Shown one piece after another: positions 1-34,755 of a DNA stretch of 34,910 bases (position 1 is the first letter of the stretch; each line of letters starts with the position of its first letter). The translations under genes were made by a program, and so were the position numbers. Location of the stretch: the NCBI GenBank assembly GCA_947498315.1, contig CANMLD010000020.1:1-34910 (forward strand), written 5' to 3'. This DNA comes from Pseudomonadota bacterium (GTDB taxonomy: Bacteria > Myxococcota_A > UBA9042 > GCA-2863065). Below the pieces are notes generated by a model, which did no database searches, was not told the DNA's origin, and saw only the letters and a program-made list of their open reading frames with translations.

Positions 1-386
1 TCGCCCTCCTCGCCGGGCGCTTCGCTTTGCCCGCCTCCGGGGGGCTCCGGCTGACACTTGACGAGCCCTGCGCTCGCCAGATGGCGATATGTGCTTGGAG
101 GTCCAGCATGTTCCGGCTCATGGGAGGGAGGGCCCGGACCGGGATGGCGAATTCGTCACGAAATCGACAGCGTGGGCTTGACGGGATTTCGAACCTCCAC
201 AAATGCCCCCAGAAGCCTCTAAACGTGGTCGAGGCGACGAAAACGGCGGAATGGGTCGCGAAGGGGCCTTGTGGGCGGCCGGAGGGGCCGTCTCGGACGT
301 CCGGGTGCCGATATGTCGCTTTGGGTGAAAATGCGCTGAAAATCGGTGTGTTACACTCATTCAGCAAGCCCCCCAGGAGGTCCCAG
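1..386. other. Left-edge stretch without a recognisable gene
   Basis: I find no convincing gene in these 386 bases. Open frames run through it on both strands, but their translations are low-complexity Arg/Pro/Ser strings with no family resemblance. The last bases hold a strong Shine-Dalgarno sequence (AGGAGG at 375-380), six bases before the ATG of the HNH remnant at 387. A short interrupted palindrome, GTGT-T-ACAC, lies near 347-356 and could belong to its old promoter. The first ~50 bases could be the tail of an upstream gene, but no frame is recognisable. Confidence 0.5.
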
Positions 387-13765: not shown

Positions 13766-14044
13766 GTGGAAGACGGGTCGTTAAGCCTCATCAAACAGGG
13801 CCTCGAAGTCCTGCTCGCAGTCTCGATGCCGATGCTCCTCGTCGGCCTCTTCGTCGGCGTCGGCATCAGCCTCGTTCAGGCCGCGACTCAGGTGCAGGAA
13901 CAGTCGCTCCAGTTCGTGCCGAAGCTCATCGCGCTCGGTGCCACCTTCTGGTTCACGGCGCCCTGGTGCGGCGAGAAGCTCATCGACTACTGCCGCCAGA
14001 TATTCACTCAGATGTCCGACGTCGGCATCGCGTCGGGCTTCTAG
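13766..14044 (+). CDS. fliQ: Flagellar export apparatus protein FliQ
   Basis: A 92-residue FliQ (family ~89) with two hydrophobic hairpin helices: VLLAVSMPMLLVGLFVGVG, then SLVQAATQVQEQSLQFVPK, and ALGATFWFTAPW. The central QAATQ-QE-L-FVPK motif is the FliQ/SctS signature. The start is GTG 13766 behind GGGAGG at 13751-13756. Four FliQ chains wrap the FliP5-FliR1 core of the export gate. It lies between fliP and fliR. Confidence 0.93.
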   Translation: MEDGSLSLIKQGLEVLLAVSMPMLLVGLFVGVGISLVQAATQVQEQSLQFVPKLIALGATFWFTAPWCGEKLIDYCRQIFTQMSDVGIASGF

Positions 14045-14063
14045 CCTCGCTGCCTGCGCCGCC

Positions 14064-14873
14064 GTGGACCTCAACTCCCCAGTCTGGGCCTTGCTCGAGC
14101 CCTTCGTGTTCGCGGCCGTACTTCTCGGCTTTCGAATGTTGGGGCTCGTGCTCGGATTGCCCGGCATGGCCGCGGGAGGCTCCTTTCCGGCACCATCGCG
14201 GATGGTCTTCGTCATATTTTTGACGACCTTCGTCTACACCGCCCTCGGGATGCCCCTGGTGCCGCTCCCGAGGGAACTCTTTACCGCCGCGTCGATGTTG
14301 CTCAAGGAGGTCATGATCGGCGCTGGCATGGGCTTCACGGTCTCGTTGCTCTTCATGGCGGCCGAGATGGCTGGCACGCTCATCAGCAACAGCACTTCGC
14401 TGTCGATGGCGACCATGATGGACCCGACGTCCGGGCAAGACAGCAGCACGGTGTCGACGCTGTTCACCATCACCGGGATGACGCTCTTCATCTCGCTCGA
14501 CGGCCATCACCACGCGATCGGTGGCCTCATGGACAACCTCGTCCTCTTCCCTCTCGGTGGCTACGCGCCCGTCGGCTTCAACGTCTCCGCGCTGATTCAG
14601 ATGGTCGACGGCGTCTTTCTAGCCGCGCTCAAAGTCGCCGCTCCGATGCTTCTGGTGGGCTGTCTCATCAACGTCGGGCTCGGCGTGATGGCGCGCGCAG
14701 CTCCTCAGCTCAACATCTTCGTGATGGGGGTCTCGGTCATCCTCATGATCAGCCTCCACTTCCTCGACCGCAGCTTCTTGGGGCTGCGGGAGGTCTATGA
14801 AGACCGGCTCCCCGAGCTCGGGGAAGAGCTCAACCGGAACTTGGTGGGTCTCGGAGAACCGCCCGCCCCTTGA
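14064..14873 (+). CDS. fliR: Flagellar export apparatus protein FliR
   Basis: A 269-residue FliR/SctT-family membrane protein with about seven hydrophobic segments. Signature stretches are EVMIGAGMGFTVSLLFMAAE, then GTLISNSTSLSMATMMDP and VGLGVMARAAPQLNIFVMG. The last two match the ..G..ID...G and A.P.LN.F..G motifs of the family, here with substitutions. GTG 14064 starts 19 bases after fliQ. No strong Shine-Dalgarno is seen and the exact start is uncertain. The stop TGA (14871-14873) abuts the inverted-repeat element and doubles as one copy of its flanking 3-bp repeat. No flhB, flhA or other flagellar gene follows, so this is a detached three-gene export-gate operon. Confidence 0.9.
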   Translation: MDLNSPVWALLEPFVFAAVLLGFRMLGLVLGLPGMAAGGSFPAPSRMVFVIFLTTFVYTALGMPLVPLPRELFTAASMLLKEVMIGAGMGFTVSLLFMAAEMAGTLISNSTSLSMATMMDPTSGQDSSTVSTLFTITGMTLFISLDGHHHAIGGLMDNLVLFPLGGYAPVGFNVSALIQMVDGVFLAALKVAAPMLLVGCLINVGLGVMARAAPQLNIFVMGVSVILMISLHFLDRSFLGLREVYEDRLPELGEELNRNLVGLGEPPAP

Positions 14874-15050
14874 GTGGGTCAGGCAAAACTCCGATCGGCA
14901 TCCGCCGGCGATTTTCTAGCATCGAGTTGCTCTCGCTCCTCGACGGGCGATGCAGCCCGCCTTCGTCGCTCGAGTACGAGCCTATCGGCGACAGCTCGCT
15001 GCGTCGAAAATCGCACGACGTATGCTCAATCTCCATGCTGTCTGACCCAC
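14874..15050 (+). mobile_element. Non-coding inverted-repeat element, copy A (MITE-like)
   Basis: A 177-bp element bounded by inverted ends GTGGGTCAG and CTGACCCAC (9 bp perfect, continuing imperfectly for about 15). It is flanked by the direct repeat TGA (14871-14873 and 15051-15053), which looks like a 3-bp target-site duplication and includes the fliR stop codon. Inside are a second inverted pair, GCGATTTTC (14908-14916) and GAAAATCGC (15006-15014), and a hairpin CGGGC-GATGCA-GCCCG (14944-14959), so one strand can fold over most of its length. There is no open frame of note. The first ~117 bases match copy B (33029-33261, opposite strand) at roughly 85-90 % by eye. It lies between convergent fliR and infC. 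Confidence 0.82.
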
Positions 15051-15080: not shown

Positions 15081-15752
15081 TTACGCGGGGCCTTGGGGGG
15101 CCTCGCCCTCGTCGTCATCATCATCGTCGTCGTCATCGAGATCGACGTCGAGCGTCTCGTCGGGCTCGTCGTCATCGTCCGGCATCGAGCCGTCCGCTTT
15201 CGGTTCGGGCTTCTTGATGATGTGCTTCAACGGCTCGACCACGGCCGAGATCCCCTTGCCATCCGGCTGGGGGCGCTGCGTGATGGTCGACATGTCCTTC
15301 AGCCGGTCGAGCAAGCTCGAGAGCTGATTGGCCCACATCTCAGGGCGGGACTTCTCGCGGCCCTTCATGCGGACTTCGAAACGCACCTTGTCACCGCGCA
15401 CCAGGAACTTGCGCGCCTGATTCAGCTTGACCTCGATGTCGTGTTCGCCGGTCTTCGGGCGTAGCGTGATCGTCTTCATCTCTGAGCGGGTCTTCGGTGC
15501 GGAGCGCTTCGACTCCTGGTACCGGAAACGTCCGTAGTCCATCACTTTGCAAACGGGAGGACGGGCGTCTGGTGCGACCTCGACGAGGTCAAGACCACGC
15601 TCGCGTGCCAGATTGAACGCCTCGAGGGGCGGCATGATGCCGAGCCGCTCTCCGGTGTCGGAGATGACGAGGACGGTGTGGGAACGGATCTCACGATTGA
15701 CTCGGTTGCGCCGCTCCGTGGGGAGCACGGGCTTCTGAAGCTTGGGATTGAT
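15081..15752 (-). CDS. infC: Translation initiation factor IF-3 with acidic C-terminal tail
   Basis: IF-3 selects the initiator tRNA/start codon on the 30S subunit. The two domains are complete: N-terminal (RRNRVNREIRSHTVLVISD, then ARERGLDLVEVAPDARPPVC and MDYGRFRYQ) and C-terminal (TITLRPKTGEHDIEVKLNQA, then RKFLVRGDKVRFEVRMKGRE). A tail of about 45 residues follows, holding DDDD and a run of nine aspartates. The best start is the rare codon ATC at 15752, giving 223 residues. AAAGGA lies eight bases upstream and the family N-terminus extends to it, whereas GTG 15728 has no Shine-Dalgarno. AUU/AUC-type starts let IF-3 repress its own synthesis. Myxococcus IF-3 (Dsg) is known for such a start and a C-terminal extension. 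The usual partners rpmI and rplT are not downstream. Confidence 0.93.
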   Translation of the reverse strand: MNPKLQKPVLPTERRNRVNREIRSHTVLVISDTGERLGIMPPLEAFNLARERGLDLVEVAPDARPPVCKVMDYGRFRYQESKRSAPKTRSEMKTITLRPKTGEHDIEVKLNQARKFLVRGDKVRFEVRMKGREKSRPEMWANQLSSLLDRLKDMSTITQRPQPDGKGISAVVEPLKHIIKKPEPKADGSMPDDDDEPDETLDVDLDDDDDDDDDEGEAPQGPA

Positions 15753-32207: not shown

Positions 32208-33017
32208 ATGAACTACGCCACGCTCGAAGAAAGAGTCCGCGCCGTCGCCGACATCGCGACCGTGTCCGAGTACGGTCGCGTCACTGAAGGTGGACGGCAA
32301 TACGCGCTCTTGCGCGTCGACACGCCCGGCGAACGCCGGCTCCTCATCACCTCGGGCTTTCACGGTGAGGAGCCCGCCGGGCCTCGCACTCTGGCGTTGC
32401 ACCTTCGCGAGATCGTGGAGGCCGCCCGCGCGCTCAAGGTTGGGGTCAGCATCTTCCCGTGTGTGAACCCGTCCGGCTTCGAGCTCGGCACTCGATACAA
32501 CGCCAGCGGACACGGCCCCAACAACGATTTCATGCGCTATGAGGGGCTAGACGGCGAATCGATCCCGCTGCTTCGTCCCGGTCAACCGTTCAGGGCGGTA
32601 CACTTGGCGCAGGGTGTCCCGGCCGAGACCGCTGCGCTCCGTGCTGCGCTCGCTAACGAGCCGACCCCGGACGCCGCGCTCGACATCCACCAGGACGACT
32701 ACATCGAAGAGCCTTGCTTCTATGTCTACGTATTCGGTGAGCGCGCCGCCTTTCGGCCGGTGCTCGACGCCTCGGTGTCGCTGGTCCGCGCGCTCGCGGA
32801 CACGGACGTCGACTCCGGCTACGCACCAGGCGAAGGGCTCGCTTCTGATGGGGACGCGTGCATCGAGTTTCAGGACGGCAGTATAACCGACTGGGTTCGC
32901 CACCGTGGCACCCCGTTCTGCGCGGCGCTCGAGACCACCACCGCCACGCCGTTCAGCACCGTGAGCGCCGTCAATATGGCGTGGGTCCACGCGTTTTTGC
33001 GGCTCGCCGCCGGTTGA
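32208..33017 (+). CDS. M14-type zinc metallopeptidase / aspartoacylase-like
   Basis: A 269-residue zinc hydrolase with an M14/succinylglutamate desuccinylase-like fold. Zinc ligands are His52 and Glu55 (GFHGEEPAG) and His161 (LDIHQDDY). The substrate loop is NPSGFELGTRYNASG, followed by NND where carboxypeptidases have NRD. The catalytic glutamate is probably Glu242 (ALETTTA). No signal peptide is seen, so it may act in the cytoplasm on small peptides or N-acyl amino acids. It is coupled to the enoyl-CoA hydratase gene. The downstream neighbour is repeat element copy B, starting 12 bases after the stop. Confidence 0.82.
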   Translation: MNYATLEERVRAVADIATVSEYGRVTEGGRQYALLRVDTPGERRLLITSGFHGEEPAGPRTLALHLREIVEAARALKVGVSIFPCVNPSGFELGTRYNASGHGPNNDFMRYEGLDGESIPLLRPGQPFRAVHLAQGVPAETAALRAALANEPTPDAALDIHQDDYIEEPCFYVYVFGERAAFRPVLDASVSLVRALADTDVDSGYAPGEGLASDGDACIEFQDGSITDWVRHRGTPFCAALETTTATPFSTVSAVNMAWVHAFLRLAAG

Positions 33018-33028
33018 GCCTCGTCAGA

Positions 33029-33261
33029 GTGGGTCGGACAAAATGGAGATTGAGCGATCGCCGCGCCCGCCGGGGGTGTGGGGGTCGTCCCCCACCCGCA
33101 AGCGCACGCACTGCCGACGCAGCCGCCCTCTTGCTTCGACTGGGCGCCGATAGGCGCGTACGCGAGAGACGAAGGCGGGCTGCATCGCCCGCCTTTGAGC
33201 GAGAGCAACTCGATGCCAGAAAACGGCCGGTGGACGCCAATCGGAGTTTTGTCCGACCCAC
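33029..33261 (-). mobile_element. Non-coding inverted-repeat element, copy B (MITE-like)
   Basis: A 233-bp relative of copy A in the opposite orientation. Its ends, GTGGGTCGGACAAAA and TTTTGTCCGACCCAC, are a 15-bp perfect inverted repeat, and AGA flanks both sides (33026-33028 and 33262-33264), a likely 3-bp target-site duplication. Read on the minus strand, its first ~117 bases follow copy A closely, including the block GCATCGAGTTGCTCTCGCTC and GCCTATCGGCG, and the 3' end shares GCTCAATCTCCAT. It has two strong internal hairpins: GGCGGGC-TGCATC-GCCCGCC (33174-33193), and GTGGGGG-TCGT-CCCCCAC (33078-33095) within a ~55-base segment absent from copy A. It sits between convergent genes (M14 and M50). 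Confidence 0.85.
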
Positions 33262-33272
33262 AGAGAGGACTC

Positions 33273-34313
33273 CTACCGCCGCAGCGCCGTGACACACCGC
33301 GCTCGGGCGGCTTCGACTGCTTCGGTGTTTGGGGCGCGTTGCAGGTAGGCGAGCGCGTCGTCGTAATCCCCGAGCTCGGTCGTGGCGAGGCCCAGCAGGG
33401 TCCACATCCGGTCAGTCTGTTCACGGCTGAGCCGGCTTACCGCCTTGACCTGATAGGCCAATCGCACGGCTTCTCGAGCGTCACCCCGTCCCAGCGCCGC
33501 TTCTCCATCGGCGAGCAGGTCGTCGCCGTGATGGTTGTGAGTCGGGGCGGGGCCCGGGGCGGCGTCGCCCCACAGAATCTTCACGTTCTCCCAGATCAGC
33601 AGGACACCCAGGAACGCGCCGAAGCGCATGCCGGCGTTCCACGCCAAGAGCACGGCGCCGAGGCCCAGCGCCGCGCCGACGCCATGGACGATCTGGGTGT
33701 TGCGTTTTCGGTCGCGCTTGTAGCGCATCAGGCCAACGCGAAGGAGGTGTCCACCGTCGAGTGGGAAGATGGGGAGCAGGTTGATGAGGCTCCACCAGAT
33801 GTTGATGTAGATCGCGAGCGTGTAGCCCTCGCCTAGTAGAGGATTCTTACGGAAAAAAAGCGGATCGGCGCTCTGTAGCGACTGCCCGATCCCCCAGATG
33901 ACGGCTCCGAACGCGAGCCCAGCGGCAGGCCCTGCCACGATGACCTGGGCCTCCGCTCTGGTGTCCGGTGCCGGCTGGTGAAAAGTGAGGCCCCCAAGCG
34001 CCCATAGCACCACACGCGGCTCGAGCCGGTACTTCGCCGCGACGAGCGCGTGCCCGAACTCGTGGACCAGCAGGCTCGCTGTCAGCACGATGAAGTAGAC
34101 GACGGGGAGCATTACCGAGATCTGAATGGTCTCGAGGCCATAGAGGACCACGGGGAATAGATACGAAAACGAGAGCGCGACCGGGATCCCCCGGATGACC
34201 ATCAACTGAAACAACGTGGAGTTCCTCCCATGATTGAAGGACGAGAGCGGGTAGCGCCGGGATGGCGGCTGTGTGTGCCGGCCCTCACGATCCGGGGCAA
34301 TCCGAGCGAGCAT
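33273..34313 (-). CDS. Site-2 protease (M50) with TPR-like C-terminal region
   Basis: A 346-residue M50 intramembrane metalloprotease. The zinc motif HEFGH is at 84-88 and the third ligand is in NLLPIFPLDGGHLLR (Asp186). About six membrane segments surround the active site. After residue ~270 a soluble tail reads like a degenerate TPR pair (ADGEAALGRGDAREAVRLAY, then LLGLATTELGDYDDALAYLQ). This resembles minimal rhomboid-adjacent or SpoIVFB-like S2P families that carry regulatory soluble domains. ATG 34313 lies seven bases after the PDZ-lipoprotein stop; a longer start would overlap it with a charged extension. The neighbouring PDZ lipoprotein suggests a regulated proteolysis unit, by inference. 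Confidence 0.88.
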   Translation of the reverse strand: MLARIAPDREGRHTQPPSRRYPLSSFNHGRNSTLFQLMVIRGIPVALSFSYLFPVVLYGLETIQISVMLPVVYFIVLTASLLVHEFGHALVAAKYRLEPRVVLWALGGLTFHQPAPDTRAEAQVIVAGPAAGLAFGAVIWGIGQSLQSADPLFFRKNPLLGEGYTLAIYINIWWSLINLLPIFPLDGGHLLRVGLMRYKRDRKRNTQIVHGVGAALGLGAVLLAWNAGMRFGAFLGVLLIWENVKILWGDAAPGPAPTHNHHGDDLLADGEAALGRGDAREAVRLAYQVKAVSRLSREQTDRMWTLLGLATTELGDYDDALAYLQRAPNTEAVEAARARCVTALRR

Positions 34314-34320
34314 ATCTGAA

Positions 34321-34755
34321 TCACTCGAGGGGTGCGAACGTGGCGGGATTGTAGGTGAAACGCCAAAGCTCACCACTTCGCTCCACGATGAGGTCGAAGG
34401 GCTTACCGCGTCGCAGCGCTGACTCCATGGCGGCCGCGCCCGCTCGGCAGCCCAAGAGATCGTCGCACGCGATGCCTACCAGCTCACGCAGCACGTCGCC
34501 TTCTCTGAGCTCCAAGAGCTCGACCACAGTCCCAGCGCGTACTCGCCGAAGCTGAAGCCCACGCCGCTGCGAGTTGCGGTACAGCGGCGCGGCTTCGTCG
34601 AAGCCACTCAGGCCCGCGTCGGTGGTCACCAGCGCGACCTCAGCGGGGGAAAGCTCGATGACGCGGCCGAGACTCGGGCCGCAGCCCAAGAGGAGCCCCA
34701 CCATGGTGCCGACGAGGACGCTCCCACAGGTAAGTTTTTGAGATTCCCGAGTCAA
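34321..34755 (-). CDS. PDZ-like domain lipoprotein
   Basis: A 144-residue lipoprotein. The signal peptide ends in MVGLLLGCG (lipobox LLGC, Cys25). The rest fits a PDZ fold: GLQLRRVRAGTVVELLELRE, then GDVLRELVGIACDD, and PFDLIVERSGELWRF. The start is TTG 34755, overlapping the upstream gene's TGA (TTGA). No in-frame ATG gives a workable signal peptide. A PDZ lipoprotein directly before an M50 protease could restrict substrate access, as separate PDZ domains do in RseP-like proteins, but that link is inferred. Confidence 0.78.
   Translation of the reverse strand: MTRESQKLTCGSVLVGTMVGLLLGCGPSLGRVIELSPAEVALVTTDAGLSGFDEAAPLYRNSQRRGLQLRRVRAGTVVELLELREGDVLRELVGIACDDLLGCRAGAAAMESALRRGKPFDLIVERSGELWRFTYNPATFAPLE

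What the first reader, a model, noticed from the sequence alone, without database searches (positions are those of the whole stretch)
14874..15050. MITE-like element family with 3-bp target duplications, sitting between convergent genes
Two copies (14874-15050, and 33029-33261 on the other strand) share GTGGGTC-type terminal inverted repeats, a ~117-base 5' block at roughly 85-90 % identity by eye, and a common 3' end. Each is flanked by a different 3-bp direct repeat (TGA, AGA), the mark of transposition rather than shared ancestry of the locus. No transposase is encoded. Both lie a few bases from the stop codons of two convergent genes; copy A starts right after the fliR stop. I cannot match the ends to a known insertion-sequence family.
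Basis: partly seen in the sequence, partly recalled or inferred. Interest (0 to 1): 0.78.

Follow-up and report, generated by a model that had tools for sequence, protein, structure and literature searches.

The report
New 3-bp-duplicating MITE family
The two sequences are copies of a small, transposase-less jumping DNA element present about 100 times in this one bacterial genome (a probable Myxococcota draft genome); it inserts at TCA/TGA triplets and duplicates them, and two branches of the family insert into that triplet in opposite orientations.

Summary
Copies A (177 bp) and B (233 bp) belong to a family of at least 100 copies in the window's own 5.0-Mb draft genome (112 left ends and 104 right ends). 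Of 82 two-ended copies, 53 carry an identical 3-bp flanking repeat (shuffled expectation 21, maximum 32). Three copies inserted into other repeats have uninterrupted 'empty' counterparts that match without gaps once element plus 3 bp is removed. The family was not found in 52 related genomes. 'Between convergent genes' is not general (21 convergent, 29 tandem, 10 divergent), and insertion at stop codons is no more frequent than TCA/TGA sites predict (9 against 8.3). The duplicated triplet depends on the branch of the family: elements with GTGGGTCGG ends sit in TCA, those with GAGGGTCAG ends in TGA (p = 3e-8; 2 changes on the tree against 14 shuffled). IS1-family (ISMhu11-like) elements sit exactly inside the same ~43-bp ends and are the only transposase found there. 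They keep their own ends, and relatives make 8-bp duplications, so they are a candidate mobiliser, not a proven one.

The parts
14874..15050 (+). Copy A of the element, 177-bp class, ends GTGGGTCAGGCA / TGTCTGACCCAC
14871..14873 (+). Left copy of the 3-bp target duplication (TGA); also the fliR stop codon
15051..15053 (+). Right copy of the 3-bp target duplication (TGA)
14874..14916 (+). Left ~43-bp end ('L' end, up to ...ATTTTC), shared with the IS1-containing elements
15006..15050 (-). Right ~45-bp end ('R' end, read inward GTGGGTCAGACAGCATGGAGATTGAG...CGATTTTCG)
33029..33261 (-). Copy B of the element, 233-bp class, ends GTGGGTCGGACAAAA / TTTTGTCCGACCCAC
33026..33028 (+). 3-bp target duplication (AGA; TCT in element orientation)
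33262..33264 (+). 3-bp target duplication, other copy (AGA)
13938..14873 (+). fliR, neighbour of copy A
15081..15728 (-). infC, convergent neighbour of copy A
32208..33017 (+). M14-type peptidase gene, neighbour of copy B
33273..34376 (-). M50-type peptidase gene, convergent neighbour of copy B

Best explanation
The two stretches are copies of a non-autonomous transposable element family (a MITE) that spread by transposition in this genome. Shown: at least 100 copies; imperfect ~43-bp terminal inverted repeats whose outer 15 bp are nearly invariant apart from positions 2, 8 and 10; length classes of about 177, 191 and 233 bp; exactly 3 bp duplicated at a palindromic preference SNYTSARNS; precise empty sites. 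Inferred: a transposase supplied in trans binds both ends as a symmetric pair and joins them to target strands cut with a 3-base stagger, most likely by ordinary DDE chemistry. The only transposase found between such ends is a DDE transposase of the ISMhu11-like branch of the IS1 family. I rate it about one in three that this enzyme mobilises the family and about one in two that an unassembled or lost transposase does. Unexplained: which of the two orientations of the TCA/TGA triplet is used is fixed by the branch of the family. The confidence given is for the MITE reading, not for the identity of the transposase.
For: Copy number. TSD statistics: 53 of 82 identical 3-mers, shuffled mean 21.3, maximum 32 in 5000; no matches at 2, 4, 5, 6, 8 or 9 bp and 5 at 1 bp. 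Empty sites: a 190-bp copy at C266:243 against uninterrupted C1:226-390 (159/165, 0 gaps); a 233-bp copy at C16:29100 nested in a 176-bp copy, against C56 (140/146, 0 gaps); a copy at C26:14964 against C266 (93/99, 0 gaps). Both ends of a copy change together at positions 2, 8 and 10 (64, 69 and 63 of 76 matched, against 37, 45 and 51 shuffled), as expected if one protein reads both ends. The 233-bp class is a median 97% identical to its consensus, the 177-bp class 92%. IS1-type transposase inside the same ends.
Against: No empty site could be shown for the two window copies: fliR-infC adjacency is absent around infC in the 14 relatives where infC was found, and no close strain is held. No intact autonomous partner is assembled. 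The only candidate keeps its own ends (GGTGGTGTCC) 43 bp inside, and its relatives make 8-bp duplications. Ordinary DDE transposition does not by itself predict that triplet orientation follows the branch of the family.
Confidence: 0.93

Rival explanations
1. The 3-bp flank is not a staggered-cut duplication but a core carried by the element: a recombinase inserts a circular form (GACCCAC-TCA-GTGGGTC) into a matching TCA or TGA, so the triplet and its orientation are inherited.
For: TCA or TGA follows the element's branch: per element 23:3 (T at position 2) against 1:17 (A), p = 2.7e-8; per end 80:11 against 2:47. Only 2 changes on a tree built without the outer 15 bp, shuffled mean 14.2, minimum 9. 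Five of six R ends with C at position 16 sit in TCC, against 6 of 95 with T.
Against: TCC/TCT against TCA is not clustered on the tree overall (6 changes against 6.5 shuffled). The target preference is palindromic over 9 bp, typical of a DDE complex. No recombinase gene was found between the ends.
Confidence: 0.15
2. The autonomous partner is the IS1-family (ISMhu11-like) element: its ends have been extended outward by 43 bp, its duplication changed from 8 to 3 bp, and the MITEs are its deletion derivatives with a new core.
For: A 1448-bp element at C129:12408-13855 has a 53-bp perfect inverted repeat ending GGTGGTGTCC and an IS1-like transposase. IS ends of several sequence groups sit at exactly the MITE's inner boundary CAATTTTC|. 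Junctions with the outer end outnumber junctions with the MITE core, about 15 to 2 (read by eye). No other transposase was found between these ends.
Against: About 11 IS copies of the same groups lie outside such ends. Relatives have GGTRGTG ends and 8-bp duplications. The C129 copy itself lacks a 3-bp duplication.
Confidence: 0.35
3. The IS1-family elements are unrelated passengers that repeatedly inserted at an A+T-rich octamer, CAATTTTC, present in both MITE ends; the real transposase is lost or unassembled.
For: IS copies outside MITEs sit next to A+T-rich octamers such as GAAAGTTC and AAATTTCT. Two MITE cores end in ...AAAATTG next to an IS end (C98, C79). Several IS groups occur both inside and outside.
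Against: A simple 8-bp-duplicating insertion gives one core junction for each outer junction; observed about 2 to 15. C129 has CAATTTTC on one side and its complement GAAAATTG on the other, not a duplication.
Confidence: 0.45
4. The element is a functional intergenic structure (a bidirectional terminator or structured RNA) kept at gene ends.
For: Both window copies lie between convergent genes and fold strongly (z -5.4 to -6.9).
Against: Only 21 of 60 classified copies are convergent. The RNAalifold covariation term is about zero (0.49 kcal/mol), with paired changes mostly in the terminal repeat. No T-rich tail at the element's outer stem; of the two terminator-like sites found around copy A, one lies outside it and one is a weak 5-pair stem inside it. 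Fold strength follows from inverted repeats.
Confidence: 0.04

Closest known systems
Bacterial MITEs such as RUP (IS630-Spn1 derived), Correia/NEMIS and ERIC (review PMC2229807)
   Same: Short, no protein, terminal inverted repeats, target duplication, ~100 copies, mostly intergenic, mobilised in trans
   Different: Those reviewed mostly have TA-type ends or duplications and are A+T-rich; this one has GWGGGTC ends, a 3-bp TSA target, is G+C-rich, and shows branch-specific triplet orientation. Their sequences were not compared here.
IS1 family, ISMhu11-like branch
   Same: Transposase between identical outer ends: 59% to a Myxococcales MAG, 41-44% to Methanospirillum, 31-34% to Acaryochloris/Deinococcus copies, several annotated IS1; two reading frames joined at a conserved CCCCCCCGTCTTGA
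   Different: Relatives end in GGTRGTG and duplicate 8 bp; here the outer ends are GWGGGTC with 3 bp
IS5-group / PIF-Harbinger elements with 3-bp TNA or TWA duplications (own knowledge, not tested)
   Same: 3-bp duplication centred in a 9-bp palindromic target
   Different: No IS5-type transposase was found between these ends; the genome was not searched for one by family
IS110/IS1111 (seekRNA-guided; PMC11187229, abstract only)
   Same: Element-specific target choice
   Different: Subterminal or no inverted repeats and a DEDD transposase; none found here

Membership tests
MITE (miniature inverted-repeat transposable element) | Short (under ~600 bp) and without a transposase gene | tested here: met
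   172-234 bp in the main classes; no transposase ORF
MITE (miniature inverted-repeat transposable element) | Terminal inverted repeats | tested here: met
MITE (miniature inverted-repeat transposable element) | Many dispersed copies with unrelated flanks | tested here: met
MITE (miniature inverted-repeat transposable element) | Target-site duplication of fixed length | tested here: met
   3 bp, 53 of 82
MITE (miniature inverted-repeat transposable element) | Empty sites | tested here: met
   Three cases, 0 gaps; not for the window copies
MITE (miniature inverted-repeat transposable element) | Autonomous element with the same ends | tested here: inconclusive
   IS1-like elements inside the same ends, but the relation is ambiguous
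IS1 family (as source of this MITE) | Transposase of the IS1 type | tested here: inconclusive
   NCBIfam NF033558 39 bits, cut-off 100; Pfam DDE_Tnp_IS1 below gathering; best annotated tblastn hits 'IS1 family' at 32-34%
IS1 family (as source of this MITE) | 8-10-bp target duplication | tested here: not met
   3 bp; no 8- or 9-bp match in 82 copies
IS1 family (as source of this MITE) | GGT..TG-type outer ends | tested here: not met
   Outer ends are GWGGGTC; GGTGGTGTCC lies 43 bp inside
REP/RAYT palindromes | Single-strand (Y1) transposition without target duplication | tested here: not met
   3-bp duplication present

The most novel reading that the evidence does not exclude
The element itself determines and transmits its 3-bp target: the triplet and its orientation are inherited along the family tree, so the '3-bp duplication' is a carried recombination core or is specified by the element's ends, not a neutral by-product of a staggered cut.
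Probability: 0.2. Interest if true: 0.7.

Novelty: new variant of a known kind. Interest (0 to 1): 0.45.

Why it matters
It is a new MITE family, so far seen in one genome, with direct proof of transposition from nested empty sites. Its sister branches use the same trinucleotide target in opposite orientations, with matching paired changes in both ends. That gives a natural experiment on how transposon ends and target choice evolve together, and on whether short target duplications can be inherited. It also shows how a strict target (TCA/TGA) makes insertions appear to prefer stop codons without any real preference.

Tried and rejected
Stop-codon targeting: 9 observed against 8.3 (sd 1.9) expected from available TSA sites. 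Convergent-gene niche: 21 convergent, 29 tandem, 10 divergent by a crude codon-usage caller. Structured RNA or terminator: no Rfam match; fold strength explained by inverted repeats; covariation mostly in the terminal repeats. Copies in relatives: none in 52 genomes; an exact 26-base pattern has no match in 84,980 species. Syntenic empty site at fliR-infC: adjacency not seen in relatives. Inheritance of TCC/TCT: not significant over the whole tree. Papers on IS1-derived MITEs with 3-bp duplications: none found.

Full report
What is there. Copy A (14874-15050, 177 bp) starts directly after the fliR stop codon, and that TGA is the left copy of its 3-bp flanking repeat. Copy B (33029-33261, 233 bp, minus strand) lies 11 bp from the stop codons of two convergent peptidase genes. 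The neighbours were identified by Pfam as fliR, infC, an M14 peptidase and an M50 peptidase.

A high-copy family. DNA searches of the window's own genome (5.02 Mb, 328 contigs, 91% complete) returned dozens of copies for each query. A 15-base end pattern has 233 matches, against 6 for the control. Longer patterns find 112 left ends and 104 right ends, so there are at least about 100 copies. I fetched 403 kb around them and paired 83 copies. Length classes cluster at about 177, 191 and 233 bp. The 233-bp class is the youngest (median 97% to its consensus; 177-bp class 92%). None was found in 52 related genomes at up to 2 mismatches, nor by an exact 26-base pattern in 84,980 species. The organism is probably a myxobacterium-related MAG: the same-class genome G028 and the record 'uncultured Myxococcales bacterium' (L255) appear to be the same locus (inference).

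Transposition is shown. Of 82 copies with both flanks, 53 have identical triplets on the two sides (shuffled mean 21.3, maximum 32 in 5000), and there is no match at 4, 5, 6, 8 or 9 bp. The triplets are TCA (25), TGA (20), TCC (5), TCT (2) and AGA (1) in element orientation; flank composition gives a 9-bp palindromic preference SNYTSARNS. Removing an element and one triplet restores uninterrupted repeats present elsewhere: C266:243-432 against C1:226-390 (159/165, no gaps); C16:29100-29332, nested in another copy, against C56 (140/146, no gaps); C26:14964 against C266 (93/99, no gaps).

Using a crude codon-usage gene caller, 21 of 60 classified copies lie between convergent genes, 29 between tandem and 10 between divergent genes. 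The stop-codon coincidence of copy A is not a special targeting: given the TSA sites available downstream of genes, 8.3 stop-codon insertions are expected and 9 are seen.

An unexpected rule. Both ends of a copy change together at positions 2, 8 and 10. The end type also predicts the triplet in element orientation: ends with T at position 2 and G at position 8 are flanked by TCA 77 times and TGA 4 times, while ends with A and A are flanked by TGA 31 times and TCA never. Per element the split is 23:3 against 1:17 (Fisher p = 2.7e-8). On a tree made from the interior only, TCA/TGA needs 2 changes, against a mean of 14.2 and a minimum of 9 in 400 shuffles. TCA and TGA are the same double-stranded triplet, so the two branches insert in opposite orientations into the same target. 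Five of six right ends with C at position 16 are flanked by TCC, but TCC/TCT is not clustered overall. A plain staggered-cut duplication does not predict this. Either the transposition complex reads the triplet asymmetrically and this reading changed together with the ends, or the triplet is carried with the element. I could not decide between them.

The possible partner. At C129:12408-13855 a 1448-bp element has the same ends, extended to a 53-bp perfect inverted repeat, and encodes a DDE transposase. It is a distant IS1-family protein (NCBIfam IS1 39 bits, below the cut-off of 100). Relatives: 59% in a Myxococcales MAG, 43-55% in several Planctomycetota MAGs, 41-44% in Methanospirillum, 31-34% in Acaryochloris and Deinococcus plasmids. 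That points to the ISMhu11-like branch (the branch name is from memory). The C129 gene and the 59% relative share the sequence CCCCCCCGTCTTGA where the frame changes by -1, reminiscent of IS1's programmed frameshift (inference). The C129 copy also has a small duplication that breaks its N-terminal frame.

Why the partner is not proven. The relatives end in GGTRGTG and duplicate 8 bp (for example GGAGGAAG, CCGTCTGG, GTCATGGA; read by eye from the outputs). In the window's genome the same GGTGGTGTCC lies 43 bp inside the outer ends, at exactly the point where the MITE core begins (CAATTTTC|). Several IS groups occur in this position, about 15 junctions with the outer end against 2 with a MITE core, but about 11 IS copies lie outside such ends. 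So either the IS1-like element extended its ends and now mobilises the family, or it repeatedly inserted at an A+T-rich octamer in the MITE's ends. No other transposase was found between these ends, but the draft assembly breaks in them and I did not search the genome for other transposase families.

Function. I see no evidence for a host function. Strong predicted folds (z -5.4 to -6.9) follow from the inverted repeats; the alignment fold has a covariation term near zero, with paired changes mostly in the outer repeat.

Verdict. A genuine, new MITE family of ordinary general kind, with one unusual and well-supported property: branch-specific orientation of its 3-bp target.

Noticed in passing
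window 1-78; C22:27489-27639, C125, C208 and others: A second dispersed repeat (CATCGAGTTCGCCGTCCTCGGCGGGCG...GATGCCCGCC, ~150 bp) has 29 matches in the genome, one at the window's left edge.
   Followed up: partly
C211:1788-2183 and C230:4429-4865: A ~220-bp repeat (CTGTTTTTCCGACCGAG...GGGAGAAAAACAG) is nested inside two copies of the MITE, probably another mobile family.
   Followed up: no
C1:226-390, C26:~14850, C266:433-531, C319: A G+C-rich repeat (GTCAGCCCCGGCTGAAGCCGGCAACGCCGGCGCTGGGGCTGA) serves as insertion target and gives the empty sites.
   Followed up: partly
C129:~13190 (L131) and L255/L171: Conserved CCCCCCCGTCTTGA at the -1 frame change of the IS1-like transposase in two genomes about 60% identical, a likely programmed frameshift signal.
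   Followed up: partly
L067:1640-1822 (C22): An HNH-endonuclease-like reading frame (MEIHHRIAWAHGGSNTADNLTLHCGPHNRL) starts inside the right end of a 1218-bp composite copy.
   Followed up: no
R ends with C at position 16: C4:19063, C67:16844, C114:15830, C251:1569, C255:5796: This end variant is flanked by TCC in five of six cases, unlike the usual TCA; unexplained.
   Followed up: partly
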